From assembly GCF_964355755.1 (NCBI RefSeq), contig NC_092673.1:3663001-3727000 (forward strand): 64,000 nt of DNA, in the 5' to 3' direction. The position numbers were made by a program, and so were the translations under genes. This document shows positions 1 through 61,243 of the stretch, one piece after another (the stretch's first letter is position 1; every line of letters starts with the position of its first letter). Origin of the DNA: Antedon mediterranea. Taxonomy: Eukaryota > Echinodermata > Crinoidea > Comatulida > Antedonidae. Below the pieces are notes generated by a model, which was not told where the DNA came from, did no database searches, and was given only the letters and a program-made list of their open reading frames with translations.

Positions 1-1160
1 ATACTCTATGCACATATAGTATACTCTGTGCACATATAGTATACTCTGTGCACATATAGTATACTCTGTGCACATATAGTATACTCTGTGCACATATAGT
101 ATACTCTATGCACATATAGTATACTCTATGCACATATAGTATACTCTATGCACATATAGTATACTCTGTGCACATATAGTATACTCTGTGCACATATAGT
201 ATACTCTGTGCACATATAGTATACTCTGTGCACATATAGTATACTCTATGTACATATAGTATACTCTATGCACATATAGTATACTCTATGCACATATAGT
301 ATACTCTATGCACATATAGTATACTCTATGCACATATAGTATACTCTATGCACATATAGTATACTCTATGCACATATAGTATACTCTATGCACATATAGT
401 ATACTCTGTGCACATATAGTATACTCTGTGCACATATAGTATACTCTATGCACATATAGTATACTCTATGCACATATAGTATACTCTATGCACATATAGT
501 ATACTCTGTGCACATATAGTATACTCTGTGCACATATAGTATACTCTATGCACATATAGTATACTCTGTGCACATATAGTATACTCTGTGCACATATAGT
601 ATACTCTATGCACATATAGTATACTCTATGCACATATAGTATACTCTATGCACATATAGTATACTCTATGCACATATAGTATACTCTATGCACATATAGT
701 ATACTCTATGCACATATAGTATACTCTATGCACATATAGTATACTCTGTGCACATATAGTAAACTCTATGCACATATAGTATACTCTATGCACATATAGT
801 ATACTCTGTGCACATATAGTATACTCTGTGCACATATAGTATACTCTATGCACATATAGTATACTCTGTGCACATATAGTAAACTCTGTGCACATATAGT
901 ATACTCTATGCACATATAGTATACTCTGTGCACATATAGTATACTCTGTGCACATATAGTATACTCTATGCACATATAGTATACTCGATGCACATATAGT
1001 ATACTCTGTGCACATATAGTATACTCTATGCACATATAGTAAACTCTATGCACATATAGTATACTCTGTGCACATATAGTATACTCTGTGCACATATAGT
1101 ATACTCGATGCACATATAGTATACTCTATGCACATATAGTGTACTCAATGCACATATAGT
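1..1160. repeat. 20-bp satellite array
   Basis: About 57 head-to-tail copies of a 20-bp unit (ATACTCTATGCACATATAGT) run from the first base of the window, so the array continues to the left. Nearly every unit is one of two versions, CTATG or CTGTG; rare variants are AAACTC (near 761, 881, 1041) and CTCGATG (near 987, 1107). From about 480 on, the order A-G-G often repeats, suggesting a 60-bp higher-order unit. The long minus-strand open frames inside are an effect of the repeat and not genes. Confidence 0.97.
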
Positions 1161-1350
1161 ATACACCATGCACACAAAATGTGTGCATATAGTATATTGT
1201 AACCACGCACATTTACTTGTGTGAGTGCACTATATGTATGCAAATTTACTTGTGTGCATAGTATACTCAATGCACACAGAATTGAATGTGTGCATATAGT
1301 ATATTGTAACCATGTACATTTACGTGTGTGCAATATAGTATACTAAATGC
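1161..1350. repeat. degenerate edge of the satellite
   Basis: Diverged, rearranged pieces of the adjacent satellite: GTGTGCATATAGTATATTGTAACCA-like segments occur twice (about 1181 and 1288) with ACTTGTGTG spacers. It looks like an old, decayed boundary of the array. Confidence 0.7.
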
Positions 1351-10063: not shown

Positions 10064-11005
10064 GTACGTATTTATTTGACATTTATATCAGGGTCTGGTT
10101 TTATAGGCCCTAGGCCTAGATTTTTTTTAATGTAAAGTGAATTTTATGAATAGTCATCAACATACTTTAGTGTCAGACCAGGGAAGAGTGAAATTACACA
10201 TTTCACTCTTCTCTAATCAGACTAAAAACATGCCCGTAGCTGGCTAGGCATAGGCCTATAATAGATAGGCCAAGCTAGCTAGAGAGAGCCTATTCTAGAA
10301 TCCTAGTATGCCTACTAAGGCCCCTACTAAGTACTATACTAAAAGTAAAACAAGCCACGCCTACTACTAGGGGCCTAGGCTAGAGGCTATGTCTACCTTT
10401 TTAAAGCTAGAACGGTATTAGCCTTCTTTGCCTATATTACTGTTACTAGCATGTAATGCAGGCATTTAGTAATTTAGTAGGGCGGGGGGTGGGGGGTGGG
10501 GGTGGTATGAGGGGATGTTGGTGCAACGCAATCATTCCCAGTGGGCCTTCCTCCACCAACCCGGAGTTGGGCAGCAGAGTTCAGAGCCTAATGAAACAAT
10601 AAATGTTTTAGTGTACTAAGGCTATTATTAATACAATTTCTATAGAAATACTTTTGTGCTGCTGTTTTCGTATACTAAAAATAATAAATATGCTTAACAA
10701 TTTATTATAACAAATGGTATTAATGATAATAAAACAATTATGTGCATCATATACTGTAATACATGTTTGCTATTTTTAGATGAAATTAAACAATCCTCTT
10801 GATTGGTTAATGATTGACGTTAACTATGGATTTCGTCATCCTGTTCTGTAATTGACCTATCAGACTAAGATAAGCCATTGATATAATTGTTATATCTCTA
10901 TACTTAAATATAACCATTGATATAATTGTTGTTATGATATCTCTATACCTATGAAATAATGTTGTAACCTTCCTTTTTCAGTGGTTGAGTGTTGCGCCTT
11001 CAACC

Positions 11006-12082
11006 ATGCCAGGTGTTAGTCTCCGATCCGGTAAAAGCCTTGCTGCTGCTGCTACTGATGAAAATAAAAATGAAGATCAAATGGAAATAACACGCAATAA
11101 AAGCTTACAAGAGCTGAATAGGAAGGTGAGAGAGAAAATAGAAAAGCTGAGCTGGTGGCAATGTTACGGCGTGGATTGGACAGTTATTTGTTTAATATAT
11201 TCTCTCCTGCCAGTAAGCTTATATTTGCTTGCTTCTCCAAACTTTTTGACATACCTACTAGGTATAGCATGCTTTGGTCTTGTTCATGGAGTCAATTCCA
11301 CTCGCTGCGCTCATATGGGAGCCCACAACGGATTGTGCCGTTCGAAAGGATGGAATATATTCTGGCGTTACTTCTTCAGCGAGTTCTGCTCTTTGTTCTC
11401 CGTAGAAGTCGGCATGGATATTCACATCAAAGTTCACCATCCGCACACGAATGTTATTGGTCTTGGTGATTCAAGTTCTTGGCGGGTGCCACAACTTCCA
11501 CGTTATGTTTACATGTTTTTTGCGCCTTTATTTCTGCCATGTCTTTCACCGCTTATTTCCGTAAAAAGGCTCTTCCAGGCTGGGAAAATAAAATCTGCTG
11601 TAAAGTGCGCATTTATCATGTTTAGCGGACTTGCCACATTTATCTACCTCCTTCAAGTTTATTCGGGACTGTCTCTCGGTAAGGCTATTGTAACCTTGTT
11701 TGCATCACGAAGTCTGACAACACCGTCGTACATACACGTCAACATATTTCAGCACATCGGGTTGCCAATGTACTCGCAGAAGAATCGTCCGCCAAGGAGT
11801 ATCTTGATGTCTACCGGTTGTTTGAATCTCAACGGCGTCCCCTTTCTTGATGTCATCTTCGGACATTCCTTAATCAGCTGTCATTTGGAGCATCATCTGT
11901 TTCCTCATCTGTCGGACAACATGTGCAGGATTGTCAAACCTATCGTCCGGGAACACATTCTACAAAATGGTCTGACGTATAATGAAGATACATACTGGAA
12001 TAGACTTAAGCTATTTGTCAAGGAATATGATACCCTTATGGTTAATGCTCCGCCCATAACGCATTACATTGGTATTGCATAA
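11006..12082 (+). CDS. FADS6: Fatty acid desaturase, FADS6-like
   Basis: Membrane-bound di-iron fatty acid desaturase; the FADS6 group has no well-established substrate. Single coding exon of 358 aa. The ATG at 11006 has A at -3; the open frame extends upstream, but a splice acceptor (TTTTTCAG at 10974-10981) bounds the exon, so the earlier TTG is not a start. Histidine boxes: H103-x3-H107 (HMGAH), H140-x3-HH145 (HIKVHH), H293-x2-HH297 (HLEHH, followed by LFP). The segment HTNVIGLGDSSSWRVPQLPR after box 2 is typical of FADS6. Hydrophobic stretches at about 60-95 and 165-230 would form the membrane segments. No cytochrome b5 domain, unlike front-end desaturases. Divergent from GOLGA7. FADS6 is recognised from box spacing and flanking motifs; another family member is possible. 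Confidence 0.85.
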   Translation: MPGVSLRSGKSLAAAATDENKNEDQMEITRNKSLQELNRKVREKIEKLSWWQCYGVDWTVICLIYSLLPVSLYLLASPNFLTYLLGIACFGLVHGVNSTRCAHMGAHNGLCRSKGWNIFWRYFFSEFCSLFSVEVGMDIHIKVHHPHTNVIGLGDSSSWRVPQLPRYVYMFFAPLFLPCLSPLISVKRLFQAGKIKSAVKCAFIMFSGLATFIYLLQVYSGLSLGKAIVTLFASRSLTTPSYIHVNIFQHIGLPMYSQKNRPPRSILMSTGCLNLNGVPFLDVIFGHSLISCHLEHHLFPHLSDNMCRIVKPIVREHILQNGLTYNEDTYWNRLKLFVKEYDTLMVNAPPITHYIGIA

Positions 12083-24043: not shown

Positions 24044-27000
24044 ATGAAATTTCAACGGTTAGGAATCGTGTTCTTTGTGACGTTATTCATGAATCGAATT
24101 CAAGCTCAATGCCCAAGCGAATGGCTTTGGAGTAAGTTTATATTATTATTATTTATATTATATATTATCATTAATATCAATACTATTATTCAACTACAAG
24201 AGGCACCGATCTGTTATAACACTTCTCTCTACCACCCCAGTAGGCCTAACTGAGGCACTAAAAGAGGAACATAATTTATTATTCGACACCATTGGGCCCA
24301 TTTCTACTACTAATAATATCCCTACTAGGCCTATAAGCTCTGTTTACACTATCAAATTTTATGTGACATGTGATGTGCCCATATGGACATGATTTGTCAT
24401 ACCACTACCATATGTGGGTGTATCAGTACCATATTTGGGCACATCACACTTTTAAAGAAATTATATGTATATTACGTATAGTATTACATACTTGTGGTTA
24501 AAAAAAACACAACATTTAATAATCTTAAATCGCCGACAATCATAAACAGATAGTATTAGTAAAGTTACATTTTTTTTTTCGGACTATACTACTGAACCAT
24601 TATAACAATATTAACACAAAACACAAGGTATTTTTACTCAAGCAAAAGTTCCCTGATGTTTGGCCAAACAAAACTACAGCCGCAAGAGACAGATATAATT
24701 CAAACTTACATAATATTGCCATTAACATTGGACTCTAAATTAAACAACGTTTGAGGCACTTGTAACATTCTATTTGTCACTGGTACTTAGCTCTCATGTC
24801 AAGACTGCTTTTAATTGACCCTGAGCAACAAATTTCATCCACTTCATTGACAATACCTATTAAGTACTTTCCCATAATCATAATACTATATACAATACAC
24901 AAGAGAATATCTAAATAATAATACTCTCTTGGCCATTTTGTTTTTAATATCTGATAATATATTTTGTATTATAAAATGACGTCATGATTAGTGAGTGCAA
25001 TAATATCGTGACGATACAATGATTTTATTGTATTTAATAATAATGACGTCATCAATTGATTGGATTTTTTTTAAATATCATTTTTATCAAAGTCAGCATA
25101 AATAGTTATCACGTATAATTCTAAAATGAAAACTTTTCTAATTTCTTGTTTTATGACGAAAATGTTATCATTGATCCCTATCATCCTAAATCTCTATCTA
25201 CACAATCAAATTATGATGTGCCCATATCATTATGGACATGATGTCATATCACTACCATATTTAAGCATATCACCACCATATTTGGGCACGTCACAATAGT
25301 TTGATCTGCAAATCCTAAAATGTATCTTATTGAATAGATAGATGAATGTCATTATCTTCATACGCCTCATCATTTATCATAAGTGACCATTATTTCTTTA
25401 AAAAAAATATGTAATATTATTTAACTTTTTGTAACAGATGCATTTAAGATGGAACCAAATAACGAGAATGTGAATGTGTCCCACGAAACGATAGACGACG
25501 ACACAAAAGAAGGGGAACATGTGACGTATTCGTTGATTCTCCACCTAAGTTGGAATAGACAAATTTCGTCATTAGGTACTGTCACATAATTGAAAATCAA
25601 AGAGTGAATCTTTCTTTCTTTCCTTCCATTCATCATACACATTCATAAACATACATAAATAAGCATAGTACAAAGAGAGAAAAAAGAATGAAGAGGGAAG
25701 AATCTCAGAAGCATAGTTTCGGAGATTTGGAATTTGAAAAATGGGCACTAAGGAATATATAGGCAAATAATTTAACTTCAGGAAAATGAAAACAATCTTT
25801 TTATAGCATAACAAAAAAGATAAAAAGTTGTTTTCTTTGAATTTCCTTCATTACAAAGCACTTAAATGAAAACATCATAAAAGCAGCAATTTGTTAACAT
25901 CAAAAATGATAACAATTTCAATCAGAATGATAGAATTGATACTTTAATCATGTACGGTAGTAAATTACTCAAAACATTAAACCATGGAGGAAATTCGTCC
26001 ATGATTAAACTATATATTATTATATCGTCTATAATTGTGTTGAAAATAATAGTCATCATTCACTGATAGCACCTAATGATCAGCTTCGGCTGGATGGACC
26101 AACCTCGTTAAATATTGAATGTTGAAATATTATAAAATAAAAGTCAAAAATTATTATAACAATAATAAGTAGCAGATGTATAGCCGCAAAGGTTTGTTTC
26201 GATCTATGCGTTTCTGACGTCACACGGATGTGTTCGGAAATGTTCAATCATTCTGTGTATTGATGTTTATAAAGCTCTAATTCATGTGGTCATGTTTGAT
26301 ATTGCGTCTCCGATATTGCGTGTTTGATATTTCGTCTCCAATATTGCGTCTCAGATATTGTGTCTCCGATATTGCGTGTCCGATATTGCGTGTCCGATAT
26401 TGCGTGTCCGATATTGCGTGTCCGATATTGCGTGTCCGATATTGCGTGTCCGATATTGCGTCTCCTATATTGCGTGTTGGATATTGCGTGTTTGATATTG
26501 GGTCTCCGATATTGCGTGGGTAATATTGGGTCTCCGATATTGCGTGTTTGATATTGCGTGTTTCATATTGCGTCTCCGATATTGCGTGTTTAATATTGCG
26601 TGTCCGATATTGCGTGTCCGATATTGCGTCTCCGATATTGCGTGTTTAATATTGCGTCTCCGATATTGCGTGTTTAATATTGCGTGTCCGATATTGCGTC
26701 TCCGATATTGCGTGTTTGATATTGCGTGTTTGATATTGCGTCTTTGTTTTGGTTTGGTTTACTATTATATCTCTCATATTAAGTACATTGTTCTACATTA
26801 ACGACAACGTGATTGGCTGGCAGACAATTTGAATATCAAAATATGTTTAACCAAAATTGAAGTTTTAATGCTCAAACATAAAACGGTTGCATTTTATGGC
26901 CATTGCTGTATTTATGAAGCAATAAATGTGTTGCTGGAAAGTAATGGTTCATAATTACAAAAACAAAAATTGTCAATATCTAACCTGATGTTCTATTTGT

Positions 27001-30000
27001 TTAATGCCGAGATATAAATAATGTGTATTTAAATATGTTTATAACCTTAGATTTTGATGGTTATGCTGTTTATACTGGCGTTGTTGGCGAACAGATAGAT
27101 ACCTTACGAGCATGTAACCTGAGTGAAAGTGGACTGCACTACACGGTAAATACACTGCATTTATTACGCGGAGCACCTTAAGCTGATTAAGCCAAAGATA
27201 TATGATTAAGTTTTAATATAATACGCTCGCGGGAATAAAAAAGTATTCAAAACTGTGAGATTTAATCTAGGTAATTGGTAGTAATTGCTTTCATTGATTA
27301 GATGCAAAATTGAAATGTTAATTTGTTACGTGACGTGTTTGTTGACTTGATACTTTAAGCAAGTGGTTAACAAAAATACTAAAAAAGATTATATTAGAAA
27401 TGTCTATTTAAAGATGTCAAAATAGGGATCTTTTTTTTCAGAAAAACAAATATTAGGAATACCATAAATGAACTTTTAAATATTAAAAATGACCTTTTTA
27501 AAAGAAAACTGGAAACATATGAATTATTCGAATTATAAATTGAAATTCGTCTAGTTACATGTGTTCATAGTTTATAGATATAAATAATATAAATAATATT
27601 TATAATAATTATAAATAAAACTCCTTTTCAGAACAAAAGAGAAACAGAGATCCAAATCAAATTCAATTATGACTACGAAATTAGGGTAAGTACTTGATTT
27701 ATGCATTTACATTATATCGTTAATAATAGAAATAGTTCATAACTAATTTCTCTTTTATTTTTAAATTGCACAAAATACGAATAATCCAATTATAAATCTG
27801 TTTATTAATATATTTACTAAATTAATAAATGAACTGTTTTGTTGCCCTAAAAAAATATTTTTTTTTTTCATTTTTTTTAATATGCCATTTTAATGTAATT
27901 GTAATAAATTACCATTCCCTAACATATAGAGTAACATAGTATTTACATGAACATTCTAGAATAAGATGTTTTGATTTAATAAACCATGTATAATTAATAA
28001 GAACAATCAAGAACATTCCAGAAGTGCTATTAATAGAAACTGTAATCATGTAATAATGAGAAGTATAAAGAATGATCTAGAAGGATAGGAGCATCTTGTA
28101 TATAAAGGGATGTAAACTATTGTAAGGTTGTTGGATTAGAGGTTGGATGTTATATTGTAAAGTCATTGTGAAGCTGTTGTTTAAAGTGCTTACTGGGTTG
28201 TTAAAGGTTGATTGAAATTAAAGCTTTGTTTTTGAGTTATTTTACAACTTTGTGGATTTTGTGTGTATACTTTTATGTCACAAGGGAGTTCCTAAAGTAT
28301 TTTCAACCGCTCGGAAACATACGTGAGAGGAGTTCGTGACATAATTTGGTGGCAGCGGTTATTTCGATCTACTGTTCGACTTAACTGTGTATTTATCTAC
28401 GGTTGTGATATTTTGTGGTAGCAGTTTGATCTACTGTATTTTGCCATAGATTGGTGGCTGTTTTAGGATCAACTGTACTTTATTGATATTTTGTGAAAGC
28501 GGTTCTTACGATACTGAGATATGTTTACGTCGGAAGCCGTGGTGCTACGTTTTGTTTAATCCTAAGTACACAAACATTGTTTTAAGAACACTACATTATT
28601 TATTTGGAACAGTAGACTTGTGAACGTCTCGGTAACTACGATTAACTAGTAACAAGACCCTCATCCAGATTTAAAATATGGCTGATAAACAATCAACAAC
28701 AAGATCCGGTAGAGAATACAGCGGCGGCGATGAATCTGATTCTGAGGTAGAATCGGTTCAGTCATTACAACCTGAACAACAGGCAGAAGAGTCTGTACCA
28801 ACCAGTGGACATAACCCTACAGGGGCTGACTCATCTTCAAAAGATGTTTTGTTGTTGATGCAGCAACAAATGCAACAGCAGAATCTAATGATGCAGCAAC
28901 AAATGCAACAACAGAATCTTATGATGCAGCAGATGATGGAACAACGCAAAGAAGATATGGAAAAACAAGAACGTTTACGTAGGGACGATATAGAGAAACA
29001 GCAAGCATTGGTAATGGCGTTAATGGATAAGCAAAAGGACAGTGAGGAGAAACGATTAAAAGATATAATGAGATTGAAGGAAGTTCAGATTGCAAAACTT
29101 TCTGATAGTGATGATATTGAAAATTATCTCACTACGTTTGAACGAATTGCTAACACCTATGAGTGGCGAAAAGAACACTGGGTAGTAAAACTGATACCAC
29201 ATTTGACAGGCAAAGCAAGAGCAGCCTATGCATCATTACCAGTGACAGAAAGTAACCAGTACGACATAGTGAAGAAAGCAATATTACAAAGGTATGACAT
29301 AACTGAAGAGACATATAGACAAAGGTTTAGGTCAATTAAAAAGAAAAGTGAAGAAAGTTATAGAGAAGTGTATGTTAGGTTGAAAGACTTATTTACTAAG
29401 TGGGCTAGGCCTGCTGATAAAAGCAAAGATGATTTAGCTGAAACTGTTATTTTAGAGCAATTGATAGATATTATGCCCACAGGGGTACAAATTTGGGTTA
29501 AAGAACATAAACCAGATTCTGGATTAAATGCTGCAGAATTAGCAGATAATTATTTTCAAGCTAGAAAAGGTACCGGTATCGATTTTGAGAAAAAGTTTCA
29601 AAATAGAAAACACGAAAATAGAAACAACCAGGAGAAAACAGTGAAAGGCACTCCTGAAGTTGACAGTAAGGGTAATAATAATCCCCCTGATAACTTTCAT
29701 AAATCACAATCTGACGCTAGACAACCTCTCGTTTGTAGACGGTGCAAAAAAGTAGGCCACATAGAACGATTTTGTCGAAGTAAGGATGGCTTTTTGTCGA
29801 CAAAGACAGATACTGTTTCAAAACCATGTACACCTTACATTTGTAGAGGCCTAGTTGAAGGATGTGATTGTGAAATTTTGATAGACTCTGGATGTGATAT
29901 GACACTTGTTCATTCTGATTTAGTAGCGGCTAAGAAAATTAATCGCGCGGAGCAAGCTAAAATTACATGCAGATGCGTCCATGACCATGTCCAAGCCTAT

Positions 30001-33000
30001 CCTACTGCATTCGTCAATATTAAGGTTAATAACGAAGACCATAATTTGTTGGTTGGCGTTTGCAGCGATTTACCAAGAGATGTAATTCTTGGTAGGGACT
30101 TTCCTAAATTTGGAGACTTATTAAGGAAGGGGAATAAGAATCATGATAGGCATAGTTTTGTTGCCACTAGAGATCATGCTAGAAAAGAAAAACTAAGAGA
30201 GGAAAACGAATTAAATTCGGAAAAAGGTTCTGGGGTTATTTCACGTCAGTTAGATGATGTGGTTAATTTTCAAGAAGAATTTGGACATTTAGATGACCAA
30301 CTACTCAGTGACAACCCTCCCAAGGAAACAGTTCATAAAACTAGAAGTGAGAAACGAAAAGTTAGGAAAGAGTTTGCAAAAACAAAGGAAGCTCAGGCTC
30401 AGTCTAGCCAAGATAGTGAATTAGACATTTTAGATATTGGCAGAGATAAAATTAACGATTATCAGGTTAAGGATAGAACTTTAATTTCACTTCGAGAACA
30501 GATGTTAGTACAGAAAGATGATGACACTATAAAGATAGTCTGTAAGGATGGAATTTTATTTAGGCAGGTTTTCACTAAACACCAGACAGAACCAATAGAG
30601 CAATTAGTAGTTCCATATCCTTGCCGTAATAGTGTATTGAAAGTCTCACATGATATTCCTTTGGCAGGTCATTTAGGTAGGAAAAAGACATTAGATAGGA
30701 TAAAGCAGAGATTCTTTTGGCCTGGTATTAGAAAGGATGTGACCGAATATTGCAACACTTGTGAAAATTGTCAGAAAACTTCAAAGTATAAAACTAAATT
30801 GAAGGCCCCGATGATTCCTATGCCAATAATCAGTGAACCATTCCGCCGAATCGCTATGGACATTGTTGGTCCACTAGCACGGAGTAAGACAGGAAATAAA
30901 TATGTCTTGGTTATATGTGATTATGCAACTCGATATCCGGAGGCTATCCCACTGAGAAGTATTGAAGCTCCAAAGATAGCGGATGAGTTGATTAAATTAT
31001 TTTCTAGGGTAGGGGTACCAACAGAAATTTTAACCGATCAAGGCTCTAACTTTACCTCTAAGTTGTTGAGTCAAGTTTATAATTTACTTTCAATTAAGGG
31101 CTTGACTACTTCTCCCTACCATCCACAAACCGATGGATTAGTGGAAAGATTTAATGGCACCCTCAAGGCTATGATTAGAAAATTTGTTCAGGATGATCCC
31201 AGAGAATGGGATAAATTGCTTCCGTACCTATTATTTGCTTATAGGGAGGTACCGCAGGAGTCAACTGGGTTCTCTCCATTTGAATTATTGTATGGTTGGA
31301 AGGTACGAGGTCCACTTGATATAATGAAAGAAATGTGGACAGGCACGGTGACAGGTCCTCAAAGTGTGGTTTCACACGTTGTTAAAATGAGAGATAGGTT
31401 AACTTCAATGAAAGATCTAGTCCAGGAAAACATTGAACTATCCCAAACAAGGCAAAAACAAAAATATGATCAGAAATCTGTTTGTAGAGAATTTAGTCCA
31501 GGTGATGAAGTCCTATTACTCTTACCATCTAGTAACGATGCATTAGAGGCAAAATGGCAAGGTCCTTACAAGGTTTTAAGGAAACTAGGTCCAGTAAACT
31601 ATGAGGTGGAAACTAATGATAAACGGAAAAAGTCAAAAGTCTACCACATAAATCTTTTAAAACAATTTCATCGTAGAACTATTGAGGTTATGCTGGCTAT
31701 AAATGATGTAACTGGACGAGACGAGGGTCAGGATAAGGACATTTCTTGGTCAAATATTTCTAGTTCCAATTTAACCTTAGATTCTGGTGAAGGATTAGAT
31801 GAATCTCAGCTTTCAGATTTAGCGGAGGTGTTTTCTGAATTTGATTCAGTGTTACAGGATAAGCCAGGGAAAACTACTGTAATAAAGCATGATATTGAAA
31901 TGAACCTAGGGGTACACCCAGTTAGATTAAGAGCTTATCCAATTCCTCAGGCTAAGTTAGGCAAAGTAAAAGAAGAGATAGAATCTATGTTGGAACTTGG
32001 GGTAATAGAAGAGTCTCACAGTCCCTGGTCCTCTCCTTATATCATGGTACCAAAGCCGGACGGTACAGCTCGCTTTTGCGTAAATTACAAAAAAGTGAAT
32101 AGCTTGAGCAAGTTTGATGCATATCCAATGCCTCGAATAGATGAAATAATAGGCAGGGTTGGTCCTGCTAAATTTATAACAAAGTTAGATTTATGTAAAG
32201 GTTACTGGCAGGTTCCATTAACTGAACGGTCAAAACCATATACTGCTTTTTCAACACCAATGGGTTTGTACCAATTTAAGTATTTACCATTTGGCTTGCA
32301 TGGGGCTCCTGCAACGTTTCAAAGAATGATGGATCAACTGTTGCGCAAGAAAGCAGCAGCTTATATGGATGATCTGGTAATATTTAGTCCAGACTGGGAA
32401 AGTCATATCCATCATCTTAGGGACATTTTTCGGACCCTCAAGCAAGCTAATCTGACAGTCAAACCTGCAAAATGTAGTTTCGCACATAGTAAAGTGCATT
32501 ATTTAGGGTATGTAGTTGGAGAGGGAATGATACGTCCTCAAAAGACTAAGGTAGAAGCGGTAGTACAATGGGAAAAACCTAAAACTAAGAAGGATGTTAA
32601 ATCTTTTCTTGGCCTGACAGGATACTACCGAAAGTTTATTCCTAATTATGCTGACATTGCAGCACCTCTAACTGATCTGACGGGGAAAAAACATCCAGAT
32701 AAAATCAAATGGACGCCTGAGTGCGAAGATGCACTTGTAAAGTTAAAACAGGCATTATGTTCAGACCCTGTGTTACGAAACCCAGATTTTAATGCAGAGT
32801 TTATACTGCAAACAGATGCGTCAGATCGAGGGTTAGGTGCAGTACTTAGTCAACTAGGTCCTGATGGTACTGACCATCCAGTATTGTATCTTAGTCGTAA
32901 GATGTTCCCAAGGGAACAGAATTATGCAACTATAGAGAAAGAGTGTTTAGCTATAAAATGGGCTGTCGAAAGTCTGCGATATTATCTACTAGGCAGAAAA

Positions 33001-36000
33001 TTTAAGATAGTTACTGACCATCAACCACTCAAATGGTTGGTTGAAATGAAAGAGACAAACAAAAGACTAACTAGATGGAGTCTTGATTTACAACCTTATT
33101 GCTTTACTGTTGTACATAGAAGGGGTATTTCTAATGGTAATGCTGACGGATTGTCACGAAAACCATTAACTTAAAGCAAGGGTTACTTTACAAATAGACA
33201 AAATAGGTTTTAATGTTTATAAGTTACTTGTTTCTTACATTTTGTTTGTAATGAGAATTTGGTTTTCACGTAATGTAGTTTGAATTTATATTCAACAGGG
33301 TTTCTAGGTCGAAAATGTTATATTTTGCCACGTCCGTGTATACTTTCCCCTCAAAACTCCAAGAAAGAGTTTTGAGCTCAGAAAGAGGGGGGAGTGTAAT
33401 AAATTACCATTCCCTAACATATAGAGTAACATAGTATTTACATGAACATTCTAGAATAAGATGTTTTGATTTAATAAACCATGTATAATTAATAAGAACA
33501 ATCAAGAACATTCCAGAAGTGCTATTAATAGAAACTGTAATCATGTAATAATGAGAAGTATAAAGAATGATCTAGAAGGATAGGAGCATCTTGTATATAA
33601 AGGGATGTAAACTATTGTAAGGTTGTTGGATTAGAGGTTGGATGTTATATTGTAAAGTCATTGTGAAGCTGTTGTTTAAAGTGCTTACTGGATTGTTAAA
33701 GGTTGAAGTTGATTGAAATTAAAGCTTTGTTTTTGAGTTATTTTACAACTTTGTGGATTTTGTGTGTATACTTTTATGTCACAAGGGAGTTCCTAAAGTA
33801 TTTTCAACCGCTCGGAAACATACGTGAGAGGAGTTCGTGACAGTAATGTAATAGTAGTATTCACTTTGACCAAAAACTGTATCGGAAATAAAAAATGTTT
33901 ACCTTAAAAAATGCAATTTAAAGCAAAAAATATTTAAATTGTCAGACAATGGTTTTTGGTTAGAATTAACCGTTTATTTTGTCTTTTTATATAAGTGAAA
34001 TAATTTGTTTTCCCTACAGAAGTGAATACATTTATTAAAACTGCAAAATGGTCTGATTTTATCCATCTTCTTTGTTCATGTTTTTGGGGGACAATATCTT
34101 TAAATATCATAATATGAAACTCCAAATAACGTCAGGGAAGTCATTTTTTAAACGCTTCGAAACAAATTGAAACATGAATTTCGCTCTCATTATATGGAGT
34201 AGGTTTTATACTATACCTGCATGTTATCTAAACATATTCAGTGCATCTATATTGGTACAAAATTAGCAAGAAAAGACTTGCGGTAAAATAGCAAAATATA
34301 AAAAATCCAATCAAAATTGGCATTTGTTAGGAATGTGGCCGTGCTTTTCAAATCGTATGGCTCTATTTATTTGCATTGACATCGATTTAATTTATTTAGT
34401 ATAATACCGATGTGATGATGATTTTTTATTTCTTTTTTCAACCGTTTCTTTCTGTATAGTTTTACTTGGCAAGCAAAGAACTTGACAAGAAATCTTTTTT
34501 AAACGATGGTGTTATACAATTTAATGGTGTTGGTAAGTAATGGATTGTAACACTCGTATCTGAATTAATGACGCAAATTAAGGCAATTAAAGTAAAAAAA
34601 GTGTGATGAGCCCAAATATGGTAGTGATATGCCCAAATATGGTAGTGATGTGCTCAAATATGGTAGTGATGTACCCAAATATGGTAGTGATATGCCCAAA
34701 TTTGGTAGTAATATGTCCAAATATGATAGTGATATATCATCATGTCCATATATGGGCATTTGTTTGTCACATAAACTTTGATAGTGTAGACAGAGCTTTA
34801 TACAAACAGTGGTTCTCCAATCTCGTCATTCCTTTGCATAGTTATGCGTTGTTTTTTAAATGTTGCTAACATTAATAAAATTAATTTATTATGATTCTCC
34901 TGTATATTTAATATTTTGTTGAATCTTTATGCTTAACATTGATATTCCACTAATGAATATTCAAATAACAAAACTTTGATTCTGTTAAAATTAATCATTT
35001 ATTTTGTCATAGATTGTTATCAAGAAACTAAAGATCGACATTTTTGTATGACGCAAGGTAAATTTATTATCAAATTCAATAATAAGCATTAACTGATGGA
35101 ATCAGAACTACAATTAAATAGAACCTCGTTTGGGACACTCTTATTTATGGTCACCTCTAGTAGGGGGACACTTTCCTGCTAAATTAATGAGGGGAAATAT
35201 ATGTTTTCACTAAATTGGACCTCTGTTCAGGGGACACTCCTATCAAGACAAGTTTTACCTCGTTCATGGTACATACGGATTCCTTAAATAATTGAACTTT
35301 TCTATTGACCATATCTAATCACCGTTAATTATACAAATAGCATATAATGTAATTGTATTAATAATCCTGAATTGTTTTTCGTTTAAATTTTCGAGAAAAA
35401 AAAGAAGAGTGAAGATTAGAGTAATACATAATATACTACGACAAATAATAATAATACATTGTATAACAACGGATACAGTACAAGGTGTTGATCCTGGCCT
35501 ACAAAGCTCAGCACAAGTTGACGGCTGGCTACCTATCTGAGCTTGTGCAGAGTTACCAGCCAACTAAATATCTTAGGTCCGGTTCCCAGTGCCTACTTGT
35601 GGTTCCAAGGACATCTACCTACGGTCAGAGAGCTTTTGGAGTGGCAGCGCCAACTTTGTGGAACTTCCTACCGATCACAATCAGACAGTGTACTTCCCTT
35701 AATTTATTTAAGACTCAACTCAAGACATTCCTTTTCCAACAAGCTTTTCATTAATTTTACATTTCCTCCTTTTATTTTTGATGTAAAGCGCATTGAGAGC
35801 TTGCTTATATGCGCTTTATAAGAACAGACTATTATTATTATTATTATTAGTTGGAAACTGAAAAACACGACAATAATTAGACATAACAGAAGTACAGTAA
35901 CTGTTTTTCAATTATGTATTTATGCCATAGATGCGCAATACGTTAGTGCGCCCATTGATGTACGTATAGAAAACATCACAATGTCACAAAGATCACACAC

Positions 36001-47769: not shown

Positions 47770-48110
47770 AAGTCAATTGGTAAAAGTGCCGATTTGTATA
47801 GTTGGTGTTGTGTGACTTCTTATGGACGAGGACTGTTTAAAGCACTTTGGTTGGTCCTATCATTGATCAAGGGCTTCTCTCGTCTAGTAAGCACCTTAAC
47901 CAGAGGAGAGGCATGGTCCAATACGTCTGAGGTAGGTACTAGATGCAGGGGCTGCCGTAAGAGTCAGCAATACGGATTTCTAATGCCTAATAGGACCCCA
48001 GCTCCATATACACACCAAATGGCCTCCCATCCAAGCTCTTACCATGCCCAACGTTGCTTAACTTCGGTGATATGACGAGAACTGGTGTTTCAACGTGGTA
48101 AGGCCGTATT
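47770..48110 (-). mobile_element. 5S rRNA-derived SINE
   Basis: The minus strand from 48110 reads like a decayed 5S rRNA: AATACGGCCTTACCACGTTG, AAGTTAAGCAACGTTGGGC and GCTTGGATGGGAGGCC, the last two being the strongest 5S signatures and covering its internal promoter. About 240 bp of non-5S body follows (CTCTTACGGCAGCCCCTGCA), which argues for a SINE3-type element instead of a plain 5S pseudogene. It lies between the convergent ends of the kinase and heparanase genes. The 93-aa plus-strand frame here is an artefact. Confidence 0.7.
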
Positions 48111-48213
48111 ATTTCATTTTGTAAAAAAATAGTACGTTACAATTATATTTTTCTTTGAATATATCAAAGTATCAACTACCGTATATAAAACCAAGAAAGA
48201 ATCCTTACCTCTT

Positions 48214-51200
48214 TCACAAGCATACCGATGCCTTAGCCCCTTTCATAACATAAAAACCGAATGAGAGAGGCGGTAATAAGATGCCATCTGTTGGGCTCAA
48301 TGTCTTTGGCAACAAGGCTGGTAACGTTCTTTCGTCGATCATTTTGAGCTTTTTGCCATTCAAATCAACTATCCTGAAAAATTACAATGTATTTTTACGA
48401 ACTTTTCCCAAAAGATTAATACTAAATGTGTTTACAATAGACACACGGAAAGACTATACGCAAAGTAGCAACAAAAACATATTTGCATACGCAAAAATAA
48501 ATAAATCGGTTTATGGTTGCTTACTGTGATCTTATGTCGCCGTTTCCGTGTGGTGTTAGCAAATACTGACCAATACCCTTAAGATCTTTGAATTGCTCAA
48601 TAGCTACATTCTTGCTCCGAGTCTTGTCCAGATTTAGTAAAACCACTGTGACGTCACCTTTGGTATATTCACTAATTTGAAGGAAAGTTAAGAACATGAA
48701 ATTGTAGACGTACGACATGTCCGGGATGAAAAGTTTTTTGAATAATTACGCATGCGCATTTATCAATGGGCGGAGTTATAGACATAAACGTTTAAGATTA
48801 CTACATTGTATGGCTAGTCGTGCTTTACTTTTAATAGCTTAGATACAGAAAAGTACTTCAAAGTATCTCATGTCTAGTATTGAAATTACTTTATAATTAC
48901 GTACGTAGGCATATTATTTTTACTTTCTATGGACCAGAGATTCCGAAATAAAAGATTGAATGAATTAATGAATGAATTATCTTTAGGGAATGGGACTTTA
49001 AATTAGTTGATTGAACAAACCTAAAGTTACGTTTATATTATTTACCTGCTTGGTAATGTGCAATGCGCATAAGCACGGATCAGTCTCAAATTCGTATCCC
49101 TTCCGTGTGCAGACGAAGTGACGTTTAAAACTTTCTGACCAACGAGTCGTTTATAGAGCAAAGACAGCCAATAATCCTTAAAAAAAAAACCCGATTGTCT
49201 TTATTTCCAATCTAAGGTCGCTAGTATTGAAGATAAAGTGGGTGGGTCAGTGGGAATGTTGGGTGTGAGTAAGAAGAGGGTAGACGGAGTAAGAAGGAGA
49301 AGAGGGTAGACGGAGTAAGGAGAAGAGTGTAGACGGAGTAAGGAGAAGAGGGTAGACGGAGTAAAGAGAAGAGTGTAGACGGAGTAAGGAGAAGAGTGTA
49401 GACGGAGTAAGGAGGAGATGGTAGATGGAGTAAAGAGAAGAGGGTAGACGGAGTAAGAAGGAGAAGAGGGTAGACGGAGTAAGGAGAAGAGTGTAGACGG
49501 AGTAAGGAGAAGAGGGTAGACGGAGTAAAGAGAAGAGTGTAGACGGAGTAAGGAGAAGAGTGTAGACGGAGTAAGGAGAAGAGTGTAGACGGAGTAAGGA
49601 GGAGATGGTAGATGGAGTAAGGAGAAGAGTGTAGACGAAGTAAGGAGAAGAGGGTAGACGGAGTAAAGAGAAGAGTGTAGACGGAGTAAGGAGAAGAGTG
49701 TAGACGGAGTAAGGAGAAGAGGGTAGACGGAGTAAGGAGAAGAGGGTAGACGGAGTAAGGAGAAGAGGGTAGACGGAGTAAGGAGAAGAGTGTAGACGGA
49801 GTAAAGAGAAGAGGGTAGACGGAGTAAGGAGAAGAGTGTAGACGGAGTAAAGAGAAGAGTGTAGGCGGAGTAAGGAGAAGAGTGTAGACGGAGTAAGGAG
49901 AAGAGGGTAGACGGAGTAAGGAGAAGAGGGTAGACGGAGTAAGGAGGAGATGGTAGACGGAGTAAGGAGAAGAGGGTAGACGGAGTAAGGAGAAGAGGGT
50001 AGACGGAGTAAGGAGAAGAGTGTAGACGTAGTAAGGAGAAGAGGGTAGATGGAGTAAGGAGAAGAGACTTAAGCTGATGTAGAAGTAGAGTATCAATGAC
50101 GCTGTGATGAAACATCCCCCAATTTCCGAAATCAAGCTCAAGTAGTATACGTATGAAACGCCATATGTGCCAAAATATTTATCTTTTTACTAATATTAAA
50201 TCAAAACTGCGTCTGGAACCAAGACTACCTTGTGTCACACAGTGGTGCCTCAACAATGTTTCAGGGAATCGCACGTTTGTGTCACACAGTGCTGTCTCAA
50301 CACCAAGATATAAAAGAAAACAAAATAATATCTAAAACAAGGTCGATGTCTTACCGGAAGAGGATCCAATTCAGATGTTAAAAGCGAGTAACTGCCTCCA
50401 TAAAGTGTTTGTCTAATTACTGTATCAATTCCATACAGAGCCGCTATGCACAGTTTATCCAGCCACCTGATATCAAATATATAACATTTAAAATATGTAT
50501 ACATGTAGATATCATTTTTACAAAATTAAGTGATATCGATCACATTTTACCATCAGTCAGCTGAGCTATTTGTGTGGGCCTATTATTATTGTTGTTGTGC
50601 GATGGAAAGTTCAGCAAGGGCCAAGTACAACTTTTGATTTGCTAGACAAGTTTTATACGAAACAAGTATAAGAAGAATCAAATGCAACGACATCATATGT
50701 AAAATTCAATACTCTCTGTATCAGTTTCTCTTCCTTTCAACCTATTTCACTTTAGCTTAGAATTATGATCAGATATTCGTACACTACTGATGATGAAGTC
50801 AAAATGAAATATAAACATCATTTTAACAGTGGACCTCTTGGTATACATAATATACTAAAGTTCTGTCTACACTATCAAACTTTATGTGACAAATAAATGT
50901 GATGTGCCCATGGACATGATGATGTCATATCACTACCATATTTGGGAATACCACTACCATATTTAGGCACATCACACTTTTTTTGTCAAACTAGTTTGAT
51001 AGTGTAGACAGAGCTTTACATGTCTGAATGATATACTGATGGCATGAAGGGTCGATACTTTTAAAAATGAAACTAATTATTTCTTTCGGTTCAGTAGAAT
51101 TGGCTAAATTTATCTGTATATGAAAGTATTTTATGCTTACATGAAACCAGAAGCATATGCATTTGATAGGCCTTTCGTACCACCACCATAAGTAGAACTG

Positions 51201-56548: not shown

Positions 56549-59500
56549 ATGAATTGGGGATACCTTGTTGTTATGTCTGGATTCATAATGTACACACTAT
56601 TTTACGGTGTTCTTTACAACTATAACCTTCTGAACATCGAATTCAAGCACCATTTCAATGCATCCGCTACTGGAACAGGTACGTGATTCAGTATCCGTTT
56701 TAAATTATGAACATCGTTTAGGCCTACCTATCCTGATGAATTCTTCTATGCATATTACCCTTGGCCGGATAGGCCTACTGAAATATAATAATGTATGAAC
56801 TAGGCCTTAAAACGAAAATGAATACATTAGGATCTCACTGTACAAAATAAAATGCTAAATTAACACAAAAACACGAACGTTTGTTGCTTAGTAGCCAGAG
56901 GCCTATATAATTATTTTTATTTCATTCTTAATTCAGCTTGGTTCCCACTAGAACGTAACGCAAGGACGTAAACGCAACGCAAGCGTTTTAACCAATCGCA
57001 AGCGAAGTTATAGACAGTTAGCAATCACAAGCAAATAAGCCATCGCTTGTGATTGGTCAATTCACTTGCGTTGCGTTACGTCCTTCTGTTGCGTCGCTAG
57101 TGGGAACCACGCTTTATATTCTTTACTTAAACGCAAGCAATAATAATGAGTATACCTAATACGATAAATTTACACTAATCATACCAAAAATATAGCTTTT
57201 ACACACATTATAATGACAAAGATAAGAATGATTTAATCGTGTCGTAAATATTCTACACGCATGAAGCAAACTCGTCTTAATATTACCATACTATTGTATT
57301 GTATTGTATTTTATTGTATAGTATTGATTGTGTTTTCCTGCCAAGAAAACAATTATCATTGTACTATGTATGAATGACTTAATAAATCGAATCTGAATCT
57401 AATAAGTAACCATATTAACAAAAATAACGCTCGTAAATATTAAGCGTACATTATAACAAAAACACAAACATCTGTAGCTTCCGTTTTTCTTAATAAGGCA
57501 TAATAGGCCTAGTTTGTTTTTTTTTTGGGGGGGGGGGGGTGGGGGGGGGGAAACATATTACTGTATTATACTATTTTCCCTTGAAATATTTAGTAGTTGG
57601 TAAGTATATAATGAGTGAGTGGCCGAGTGGTTAAGACAGTGGAACCGTAATTACGTAGCCATAACATTGGCAGGGGTTCGAGGCTCACTCGACTCCATGG
57701 TTCTGGTGGTAGAACGAGTCTTCTCGGATAAGGACTATAAACCGTAGGTCCAGAGTACACATCTAGCTTGTGTGCACTTTAAAGAACCTAGTACATCTTT
57801 CGAGACGCGTAGGGGGTTACCCTGGCGTATTAGTACATCACAGCCACTGTTCACCAACTGAGCCCTCTGGGAGACCAGTCTTTGATTGAAGGGAGGTTAC
57901 CCAGTATAAATATATATTTCAATCAATAATTTGTTTCTCCGGACATCTTCTCCAATTTCATAGCTTTTTTTGCAAATATCAAGAAAACACAGTGAATGCA
58001 TGCCGAACACATAGATATGTATTTGTATATATTTGTGTGTGAGAAATACAAAGAACACAAAGTATTTAAATGTCCTAATCGATATAAATTCATCTTCATA
58101 GCGCTTCCAGGTTCCATTGCAATTATGTCTAGTGGAGTATCTGCATCTGTGGTCACCTACATCTATCAGGTCATCGGTCACCGCAAGACCATATGCATTG
58201 GCGTTGCCTTGTCGTCTCTTGGCCTACTCGCAACTTCATTTGTACATGACATACAGGTTGTGTGCATTACATATGGGGTAATGTTTGGACTGGGTTGTGC
58301 TTTCATGCATCTACCGTTCGTAAGCGTGACGTCATGTTATTTTAAGGGCCGGTATTTAACCAGGGTCCTCTGCTTCCAGTTTGTCGGGGCAAGCGTTGGT
58401 AAGTATAGGCCGCGCCTATAGACATTGTGATAACTCTTGACAAGGTAAACATGGACAGTAAATTTAGGATAGATGTCATGGTCATCCTGCGACATGACGC
58501 TTTCCACTGTAACGCATGGTTCCCACTAGTGACGCATAGTAACCCAACCACGCAACGTAAGAAGATGCCTTTATACAATAAATGTGTTTTCCCCAGCCTG
58601 CCTGCGATGTTTGTTGCACTATTGCGTCGACGGTTCCCACTTGTGGTTACGCAATACAGCACTTTGCGTCGATACGTCGCTGCGTTGCGTCGCTAGTGGG
58701 AACCACGCTTAAAGATGTATTGTCCCCCTGCAAAATAATTGTTTTAAATTTTTTTTTTTTTAATAGGCCATTTTAATGTCACATAATAGTTATTGACTTC
58801 GACCAAAAATTGTATCGAAAGTTTCAGGTTTTCATGGTACTCTAAGCTCCTTAATTTCATTAATCAACCTTTTGAATGGTTTAAAAATATAGTTAATGGA
58901 TGTTTTGTTGAATTTAACCATTTATCATGTTATTTTATAAGTGAAAACATTATTTTTTTCATTCACTTTATTAAAACTACAAAATAATAACATATTCAAA
59001 GTCTGATTTAATTAAGCTTTATTGTTCATGTTTTGGGGGGGGGGGGGACAATACATCTTTAATGGAACATGATGGTAGAATTAGGCCTAGTGATGAGATT
59101 TTTAGCTTGACTTTCGAATGATCCCCAATACTGCATATAACATTGCAATACTTTCAACTTCTCTCGCAGGTCTTTCATTGGCGCCAGGTATTGAATGGCT
59201 CTACAGTAGATATTCATGGAGGGTGGCCCTTCGCATCATTGCCATCGTACTAACAGTTATCGGGCTACCTTGTACAGCAGTTGCCACTGGCAATCGTAGC
59301 CAGGAGGAAAATATTAATGAAGATTCAAAAGATACTAAGAAAGTTGTTAAAAAATCTCGAAAACAAACGTCGAGTTTATTCCGCTACATGACATTAATGA
59401 AGACATTCAATTACGTTATTTCCATGCCAGCTTTTTTGTTGATGTCCGTGTCTGTAGCATTTTCTTATATAAGTCTTGTAAGTACAGTCACCTGCCAAAC

Positions 59501-61243
59501 TAATGTGCCTTTTCCTGCTTATTTATTTACCCGGGTAAGTTGATTACATCCACCAACCAACTTATATTACCCGGGTAATGGGTCTTGTTTGCTTTAAAAC
59601 TACTTTGCCCGTGTGGTTCCTAATATCCACCATATTTTGCGATAAGTCAACTTATCCGGGTAAATAGCCAAGTTATCCGGGTAAATAACTAAGCCTTATC
59701 CGTGTAAATAACTAAGCCTTATCCGTGTAAATAACTAAGGCTTATCCGTGTAAATAACTAAGCCTTATCCGGGTAAATAACTAAGCCTTATCCGGGTAAA
59801 TAACCAAGTTATCCGGGTAAATAACTAAGCCTTATCCGGGTAAATAACTAAGCCTTATCCGGGTAAATAACCAAGTTATCCGGGTAAATAACTAAGCCTT
59901 ATCCGGGTAAATAACTAGAACTTATCCGGGTAAATAACTAAGCCTTATCCGGGTATCCTTATGTTTTTTTTACAATATTGATTACTATATTTTTAATTGC
60001 AGGGTATCTATTTAGAAAATGCAAGTCTAAATACAGCCACCATCTCGTTGATATTAAGTCTTATGGGAGCTGGTGATATCGTTGGTCGACTATCAATTTC
60101 CTTTGGTTCCATGCACGTACCTCTCTCACTCACTGTGCAATATATTCTGGTGATCATTACAACAGCCGGGTTCACTGTGGCAATTCCGTTTTCAACCACA
60201 CAGACATCACTTATAGTTGTATTGACAGGTAAATTAAAAAAATAATGTGATAATAAAAAAACGACCTCCAAGAGCAAATCTTTGTAGAACTAGAAAATCC
60301 TTCGTTGTAAATAGCATTCATATTTTTAATTCTAATGTAAGACGTTAATGCAATTTTTAATAGTTTTACATTTTTAACAGCATTTTTAACTTTTTATCTT
60401 GTATTTTTAATCTGTTATAATACTGCACGTTTTTAAATTGTTGCAATATTGTTGTTTTAATCTACCAAGCAAAGTGAATTTCCATTTTTATGGACAAATA
60501 AAATTTCTTGAATCTTGAATCTTGAATGAGTGCACCACTATTTGCTAATCTATCTACATTTGCGTCGATACGTGGCTGCGTTGCGTTCTAGTAGGAATCA
60601 AGCGTTTGGGCCTCGACGTTTAAATGACGACGCACGCGTCATTAGTGTTACTAAATTATTATGTTACTTTATTATTTTGTATTTAGGTTTGGGTATGACT
60701 AGAGGCATGTTATTTACAGCAGTGGTCTCAGCCGCAATTGACGTAGCACCGACTGCCTTGAGTGCCGAAGGACTTGCAATGATGTATATATTTTTTGGTA
60801 CAGGCACGTTCTTGGCTCCTTATGTTACAGGTAATATACCTAACTATCTATTCATTAAATAATATTAAATATATAATAAATAGTGAAAAAAATGTTTTTA
60901 AATGCATTTTTTTCGGTATATAATCAATATACATCTGTAATAATAACTGAATAAAATCAATGATTGACAATATTAACTTACGTTTATCATCATTGACTTT
61001 TTGATATTTTTATATTATCATATTAATAATATTTTTTGTTTTTCAGATAACATCTATGACAAGACTGGAAGTTATAAATTAGGTATATTTGTTTGTGTTG
61101 GAACGTATATTCTAGCAGCGGCACTGTTTACAATTGGACATATATACAAAAGATACACCAATAGGAGTAACATGCACAGCGAACTAATGGAAACAAAGTT
61201 TGAAAGTGTGCCAATGGATGAAGCGACCGAGCAGCCAGTCTAA
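56549..61243 (+). CDS. Monocarboxylate transporter-like protein (SLC16 family, MFS)
   Basis: Predicted plasma-membrane major facilitator carrier of 433 aa. Six exons: 56549-56678, 58102-58398, 59170-59477, 60003-60228, 60687-60830, 61047-61243, all GT-AG with matching phases. TM1 is NWGYLVVMSGFIMYTLFYGV, the position of the SLC16 signature, but the acidic residue and the full GGWGW pattern are absent. TM2-4 lie in exon 2 (SVVTYIYQVIGHRKT between TM2 and TM3, then GVMFGLGCAFMHLPFVSV). A charged loop of about 30 residues (NRSQEENINEDSKDTKKVVK) separates TM6 and TM7 as in MCTs. GAGDIVGRLSISFG in exon 4 matches the TM8 region. The C-terminus is cytosolic and short. The ATG at 56549 is preceded by LK codons open upstream only into the intron, so the first exon is probably non-coding. 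Substrate not predictable; several SLC16 members are orphans. Confidence 0.85.
56935..57116. mobile_element. M2A MITE
   Basis: AGCTTGGTTCCCACTAGAAC to GCGTCGCTAGTGGGAACCAC with intact fold-back. Intron 1 of the SLC16-like gene. Confidence 0.9.
57300..57405 (+). mobile_element. LINE- or SINE-like 3' tail
   Basis: TATTGTATTGTATT run, then CTGCCAAGAAAACAATTATC, CATTGTACTATGTATGAATG and AATAAATCGAATCTGAATCT. Resembles other microsatellite-ended tails in the window (41450, 60490). Confidence 0.4.
57515..57551 (+). repeat. poly-T then poly-G tract
   Basis: TTTTTTTTTGGGGGGGGGGGGGTGGGG-type run, a candidate G-quadruplex on the coding strand of the SLC16-like intron 1. Similar G runs occur at about 45075-45095 and 59030-59048. 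Confidence 0.7.
57613..57930 (+). mobile_element. tRNA-derived SINE, full length
   Basis: The head resembles a class II (Leu/Ser-like) tRNA: GAGTGAG at the 5' end pairs with CTCACTC; A box TGGCCGAGTGGTTAAG at 57620; B-box-like GGGGTTCGAGGCTC. A body of about 230 bp ends in AAATATATATTTCAATCAAT. Two truncated relatives lie at 6455-6595 and 37838-38005. Intron 1 of the SLC16-like gene. Confidence 0.85.
58510..58712. mobile_element. M2B MITE, inverted
   Basis: ATGGTTCCCACTAGTGACGC to GTCGCTAGTGGGAACCACGC with a partly deleted GC-rich centre. It starts about 110 bp after exon 2 of the SLC16-like gene and is joined directly to an M3 copy. Confidence 0.85.
58713..59064. mobile_element. M3 MITE-like element, complete
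   Basis: AAAGATGTATTGTCCCCCTG at the left and GGACAATACATCTTTAATGG at the right are inverted repeats. It ends about 105 bp before exon 3 of the SLC16-like gene. Confidence 0.8.
59640..59957. repeat. 23-bp minisatellite, about 13 copies
   Basis: Unit AACTAAGCCTTATCCGGGTA plus AAT; some units are 21 bp (AACCAAGTTATCCGGGTAAAT). Single TTACCCGGGTAA palindromes precede it at about 59528 and 59565. It ends 45 bp before exon 4 of the SLC16-like gene. Confidence 0.93.
60490..60530 (+). mobile_element. LINE-like 3' tail
   Basis: GGACAAATAAAATTTCTTGA, then three CTTGAAT units. A similar AATAAAGTTTCTTGTATCTT lies at 23826. Confidence 0.4.

What the first reader, a model, noticed from the sequence alone, without database searches (positions are those of the whole stretch)
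27900..33842. Young, intact Gypsy-type element with Copia-type domain order
In the single 1498-aa ORF the integrase triad (D728, D787, E823) comes before the reverse transcriptase YMDD (1229-1232) and RNase H, the reverse of normal Ty3/Gypsy order. This is the known trait of Gmr1-like elements. The copy is complete: 5-bp GTAAT duplication, LTRs differing by one base and one 6-bp indel, polypurine tract, all catalytic residues. It is probably a currently or very recently active member.
Basis: partly seen in the sequence, partly recalled or inferred. Interest (0 to 1): 0.75.

Follow-up and report, generated by a model that had tools for sequence, protein, structure and literature searches.

The report
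Young Gmr1-like retrotransposon, damaged polymerase
A recently inserted jumping gene of an already known kind (Gmr1-like, with its integrase placed before its reverse transcriptase) sits in a feather-star genome, and although it looks complete, this copy lacks three amino acids beside the active site of its reverse transcriptase that the relatives examined keep.

Summary
Window 27900-33842 is a complete-looking LTR retrotransposon with one 1498-codon ORF in the order Gag(SCAN)-protease-integrase-RT-RNase H, a GTAAT duplication, a primer-binding-like site and a polypurine tract. The host is a crinoid close to Antedon mediterranea. Membership in the known Gmr1-like clade is supported: integrase-first rows form one side of a branch in both RT and integrase trees, the capsid carries SCAN, and integrase lies upstream in all 76 of 127 genome RT rows that could be paired. 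The family is recent: 12 of 20 two-LTR elements examined have identical LTRs.

It lacks nine in-frame bases directly before YMDD: the F-to-YxDD spacing is 15 here and 18 in 81 of 81 integrase-first homologs, and 17 of 17 sibling RT hits keep the nine bases. Two further private 6-bp indels lie in gag and the 5' LTR. Loss of function is inferred; an AlphaFold model keeps the palm fold. New member of a known kind, of modest interest.

The parts
27895..27899 (.). left target-site duplication GTAAT
27900..28341 (+). 5' LTR (442 bp); TATATAA at 28099, ATTAAA at 28217; private substitution at 28197 and private 6-bp deletion at 28206/28207
   Evidence: promoter and polyadenylation roles inferred
28347..28358 (+). 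primer-binding-like site, five bases after the LTR; tRNA-Leu match recalled, not tested
   Evidence: the same in 15 of 15 sister elements
28678..33174 (+). single gag-pol ORF, 1498 codons
29305..29568 (+). SCAN domain (capsid C-terminal domain)
   Evidence: Pfam E 8e-24; PDB 3lhr by sequence and by predicted structure
29569..29574 (+). private 6-bp in-frame insertion just after SCAN (placement by aligner)
   Evidence: absent in 13 of 13 other copies aligned
29734..29775 (+). CCHC zinc knuckle
   Evidence: motif
29851..30102 (+). aspartic protease
   Evidence: Pfam just under cut-off; DSG motif
30610..31662 (+). integrase: H2C2 zinc domain, DD35E core (D728, D787, E823), C-terminal p58/GPY domain
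   Evidence: best solved relative Ty3 integrase
32047..32514 (+). reverse transcriptase; YMDD at 32362-32373
   Evidence: best solved relative Ty3 RT
32352..32353 (+). junction of the private 9-bp in-frame deletion, directly upstream of the AAAYMDD strand
32710..33099 (+). RNase H
33380..33394 (+). polypurine tract
33395..33842 (+). 3' LTR (448 bp)
33843..33847 (.). right target-site duplication GTAAT

Best explanation
A recent insertion of a Gmr1-like Ty3/gypsy retrotransposon (Metaviridae) in a crinoid. Shown: LTR-bounded structure, one gag-pol ORF in the order Gag(SCAN)-PR-IN-RT-RH, target duplication, sister copies with identical LTRs, agreeing RT and integrase trees. Inferred from knowledge of the family: the LTR drives an RNA, the polyprotein is cut by its protease, capsids form with the SCAN-type domain, a tRNA primes reverse transcription, and integrase joins the DNA to a staggered cut. 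Inferred for this copy: the private deletion directly before YMDD probably weakens or kills its RT. It is then either a copy made with sister-encoded proteins (deletion before insertion) or one that decayed afterwards; the data do not say which. The two LTR differences most simply arose after insertion.
For: Structure. Clade: 81 of 120 listed homologs have simple IN-RT order and 64 of these match the capsid piece; IN-first rows are one side of a branch, RT 100/100 and IN 90/99, then 100/99 and 98/97. IN upstream in 76 of 127 genome RT rows, downstream in 0, unpaired in 51. SCAN. Recency: 12 of 20 two-LTR elements have identical LTRs. Defect: spacing 15 against 18 in 81 of 81 homologs; nine bases longer in 17 of 17 sibling RT hits; alignment gap in the window alone of 14 copies.
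Against: The ORF is open end to end, and 4 of 8 private substitutions are synonymous, so there is no other sign of decay. AlphaFold keeps the palm fold around the deletion (mean pLDDT 79.4, with the model not tuned to activity). The IN split was 90/99 in the first tree, and rose only after five long canonical rows were dropped and two more IN-first rows added. 20 of 23 canonical segments come from one arachnid. Sister copies were picked as best matches to this LTR, so recency is biased upward.
Confidence: 0.75

Rival explanations
1. One reading: this copy itself is intact and able to move; the shorter stretch before YMDD is tolerated.
For: Open ORF and all catalytic letters; near-identical LTRs; predicted RT keeps helix and catalytic strands.
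Against: Spacing invariant at 18 in 81 of 81 homologs and nine bases longer in 17 of 17 sibling RT hits; non-Gmr1 rows show 17-20. Two further private 6-bp indels.
Confidence: 0.15
2. The private indels are errors of the assembly and the real copy is like its siblings.
For: Three short indels are private to this copy.
Against: All three are multiples of three or six bases, lie outside homopolymers and leave the frame open; 13 other copies aligned show no private gaps in the three pieces.
Confidence: 0.06
3. A chimera of an unrelated integrase and RT.
For: The order is the reverse of canonical Gypsy.
Against: RT and IN have the same four nearest rows (P0001, P0002, P0005, P0006) and the IN-first group holds in both trees; 81 of 120 listed homologs and 76 of 127 genome rows share the order.
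Confidence: 0.02

Closest known systems
Gmr1-like clade of Ty3/gypsy elements
   Same: Integrase upstream of RT, as PMC3587641 and PMC8220671 describe the clade (passages); SCAN in the capsid, as reported for over half of frog Gmr elements in PMC4131045 (passages).
   Different: Host is a crinoid; nearest named non-crinoid relatives are amphioxus, fish, frog and turtle elements at about 57-62% over RT. This copy has a shortened RT. No named Gmr1 sequence was available to compare.
Element of the Antedon mediterranea protein P0001
   Same: 99% over the RT region; same neighbours in both trees.
   Different: P0001 keeps the three residues before YMDD; its gag lacks a stretch inside SCAN, perhaps through its gene model.
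Ty3 of yeast (PDB 4ol8, 7q5b)
   Same: Homologous RT-RNase H and integrase.
   Different: In 7q5b RT (chain 594-1004) precedes integrase (1087-1445); no SCAN model match was looked for there.
SCAN domains of vertebrate zinc-finger proteins (ZNF24 and others)
   Same: The capsid C-terminal domain matches by sequence and by predicted fold.
   Different: Here it is part of a retrotransposon Gag. The origin of host SCAN from Gmr1-like capsids is reported in PMC4592553 and PMC3406341 (passages).

Membership tests
Gmr1-like Ty3/gypsy | integrase encoded upstream of RT-RNase H | tested here: met
   definition from passages of PMC3587641 and PMC8220671
Gmr1-like Ty3/gypsy | RT and integrase both group with other integrase-first Gypsy elements | tested here: met
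   IN support 90/99 in the first set
Gmr1-like Ty3/gypsy | grouping with the named Gmr1 element itself | not tested
   no record bearing that name was among the rows
Gmr1-like Ty3/gypsy | SCAN-type capsid domain (common, not universal: over 50% of frog Gmr elements) | tested here: met
   PMC4131045 passages
Gmr1-like Ty3/gypsy | tRNA-Leu primer-binding site (recalled, may not define the clade) | not tested
   pattern search did not complete
Ty1/copia | RT and integrase closest to Copia | tested here: not met
   best solved relative is Ty3 for both
currently active element (this copy) | undamaged RT | tested here: inconclusive
   private deletion before YMDD against retained predicted fold
currently active element (this copy) | polymorphic empty site or transcript | not testable with these tools
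   one assembly, no reads or RNA

The most novel reading that the evidence does not exclude
The integrase of this family may join to its target with a flexible stagger: of 20 two-LTR elements 13 have 5-bp and 7 have 4-bp duplications, and copies with identical integrase pieces show both lengths. Four of the seven 4-bp cases could be 5-bp if the LTR's first T is shared with the target; three cannot be read so.
Probability: 0.35. Interest if true: 0.4.

Novelty: new member of a known kind. Interest (0 to 1): 0.27.

Why it matters
It adds a crinoid family with a SCAN-type capsid to the Gmr1-like clade, the group from which vertebrate SCAN domains are thought to come (PMC4592553, PMC3406341, passages), and shows that integrase-first elements are numerous and partly very recent in this genome. 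It also shows that an open reading frame with every catalytic letter can hide a likely defect that only sibling copies reveal.

Tried and rejected
Chimera of unrelated RT and integrase: rejected by agreeing trees. Copia membership: rejected by best solved relatives. Exact age from LTRs: not claimed, because no crinoid rate is at hand; one substitution in 442 sites would be about 0.1 million years at an assumed 1e-8 per site per year and about 1 million at 1e-9. Primer tRNA: the genome search for a tRNA-Leu 3' end did not complete, so tRNA-Leu stays recalled. A second LTR search with another copy's LTR did not complete. A genome search with Pfam RVT_1 did not complete. Structure of the shortened RT: obtained, judged not diagnostic. 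Pattern artefact: one search listed a spacing of 14 for P0039; the stricter pattern, run on the 81 IN-RT proteins, gave 18 for all. A paper search on deletions near YXDD (three listed) was not followed. Literature on crinoid or echinoderm Gmr1 elements: (listings only) showed no title on it; that is no proof of absence.

Selection and limits of counts: sister copies are the best LTR matches to the window (40 scored of 388 candidates) plus four further RT hits, so they lean to the same young subfamily. Of the 40 LTR hits, 32 are the two LTRs of 16 elements, window included. Of the 8 others, 3 are solo LTRs with 5-bp duplications, 2 belong to shortened two-LTR elements (L027, L035), and 3 are truncated or unclear. 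Of the four RT hits, two had both LTRs in the stretch. That makes 20 two-LTR elements. Trees used 21 of the 81 IN-RT homologs plus the window, and 23 canonical segments, 20 of them from Cordylochernes; one search dropped five long canonical rows and added two families of this genome.

Full report
What is there. Window 27900-33842 is an LTR retrotransposon on the + strand. The LTRs are 442 and 448 bp, begin TGTA, end GACA, and differ by one substitution and one 6-bp gap. GTAAT flanks both sides. Between the LTRs lie a 336-nt leader with a primer-binding-like site (28347-28358), one 1498-codon ORF (28678-33174) and a 220-nt stretch that ends in the polypurine tract.

Host. The nearest database protein is from Antedon mediterranea, 99% over the RT region. 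A fatty acid desaturase 6-like gene in the window has, after the window's own record, the crinoid Anneissia japonica as next relative at 73%. The genome has 354 Mb in 18 contigs; the eleven whose lengths were shown, C1-C11, run from 41.4 to 22.3 Mb. The host is a crinoid, probably Antedon. The exact species is not proven: the contig length given with the Antedon protein (38,962,182) equals none of the eleven, the nearest being 38,956,436.

Clade. Of 120 listed homologs 81 have simple integrase-RT order, and 64 of those match the capsid piece. The other 39 are canonical RT-first or mixed rows, mostly arachnid tandem models, some with RT only, and a few rearranged integrase-first ones. Maximum-likelihood trees of RT and of integrase, built apart on the same 45 rows, both put all 22 integrase-first rows on one side of a branch: 100/100 for RT, 90/99 for integrase. 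With two further families of this genome added and five long canonical rows dropped, support is 100/99 and 98/97. The window has the same four nearest rows in both. 'Integrase upstream of RT' is how PMC3587641 and PMC8220671 describe Gmr1-like elements (passages). The original description (Goodwin and Poulter 2002) is recalled, not seen.

SCAN. The capsid C-terminus matches human SCAN domains by sequence (ZNF24, E 4.2e-13), and the predicted capsid structure (mean pLDDT 83.9) matches SCAN crystal structures (3lhr_A, TM-score 0.80 on the target). SCAN in Gmr elements is known (PMC4131045, passages), as is the proposed origin of vertebrate SCAN domains from Gmr1-like capsids (PMC4592553, PMC3406341, passages). 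This is a confirmation, not a discovery.

The family in its genome. An RT search scored 127 of 1185 candidates: 18 rows, window included, at 98-100%; two rows at 93 and 96% that are pieces of one further copy; and 107 rows at 45-51%. In 76 of the 127 an integrase hit lies within 2.5 kb on the same strand, upstream in each; 51 have no listed integrase nearby, which may reflect the capped list. Two of the distant families were read directly and also have integrase first with a capsid match. So integrase-first elements form several families here. Among 20 elements with two LTRs, 12 have identical LTRs. The other eight differ by 0 to 3 substitutions, and three of them (window, L027, L035) have a gap, of 6, 24 and 85 bp. 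Three solo LTRs were also seen.

This copy. The RT reads from the helix before YMDD into the catalytic strand three residues short. The 17 sibling RT rows are each nine bases longer over the same piece, and of 14 copies aligned over RT the window alone has the gap. The spacing from the conserved F to YxDD is 18 in 81 of 81 IN-RT homologs and 15 here; among non-Gmr1 rows saw 17-20, and its single 14 was a pattern artefact. A 6-bp insertion after SCAN is absent in 13 of 13 other copies aligned there. The 5' LTR substitution and 6-bp deletion occur in none of 30 LTRs of 15 sister elements. Window-private substitutions in the three pieces number 8, of which 4 are synonymous and 4 nonsynonymous; other copies have 0 to 24. 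The LTR differences most simply arose after insertion, since both LTRs are made from one template. The RT deletion may be older or younger than the insertion; if older, this copy was made with sibling proteins. That it harms the enzyme is inferred from its invariance elsewhere. The AlphaFold model of the RT piece (mean pLDDT 79.4) keeps the helix and both catalytic strands, which neither shows nor excludes a defect.

Target duplications. All 20 two-LTR elements have one: 13 of 5 bp and 7 of 4 bp. Copies with identical integrase pieces (residues 621-1000) show both lengths (L009 with L012, L012 with L013). Four of the 4-bp cases have T as the next base on the right and could be 5-bp duplications that share the LTR's first T; three cannot. 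This is the only part that goes somewhat beyond a standard description, and it needs empty sites to settle.

Verdict. The claim that this copy is complete and probably active is not. New member of a known kind.

Noticed in passing
flanks of L009-L023, L027, L035, L040, L043 and window 27895-27899: Target duplications are 5 bp in 13 and 4 bp in 7 of 20 two-LTR elements of one family.
   Followed up: partly
G000:C8:7464966-7470389 and G000:C2:40540599-40546953: Two family copies have the integrase region split by about 4.3 and 5.1 kb, as if another element had inserted there.
   Followed up: no
L020, L023, L027, L035: Shortened two-LTR elements (1.85 to 3.8 kb) with target duplications and few LTR substitutions; possibly non-autonomous forms moved by full-length siblings.
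   Followed up: partly
window 28856-28921: A 33-nt tandem repeat in the glutamine-rich gag N-terminus; ORF length differs among sister copies.
   Followed up: no
window 29038-29667 against 31918-33147: Over the capsid piece the window is nearest to L019 (0.8%) and about 2% from most copies, but over RT it is about 0.4-0.5% from most copies and 1.1% from L019, which suggests recombination within the family.
   Followed up: partly
window 10985-12082 +: An uninterrupted fatty acid desaturase 6-like ORF, nearest to the crinoid Anneissia japonica (73%).
   Followed up: partly
window 47993-48111 -: One full-length 5S rRNA match at 48.7 bits against a gathering score of 38.
   Followed up: no
window 1-1174, 26298-26741, 49272-50066: Long minisatellite arrays with periods 20, 14 and 23; the last coincides with long minus-strand ORFs that look spurious.
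   Followed up: no
window 57996-58418 + and 59106-59540 +: Two open stretches with weak major-facilitator matches below the Pfam cut-off, perhaps exons of one transporter gene.
   Followed up: no
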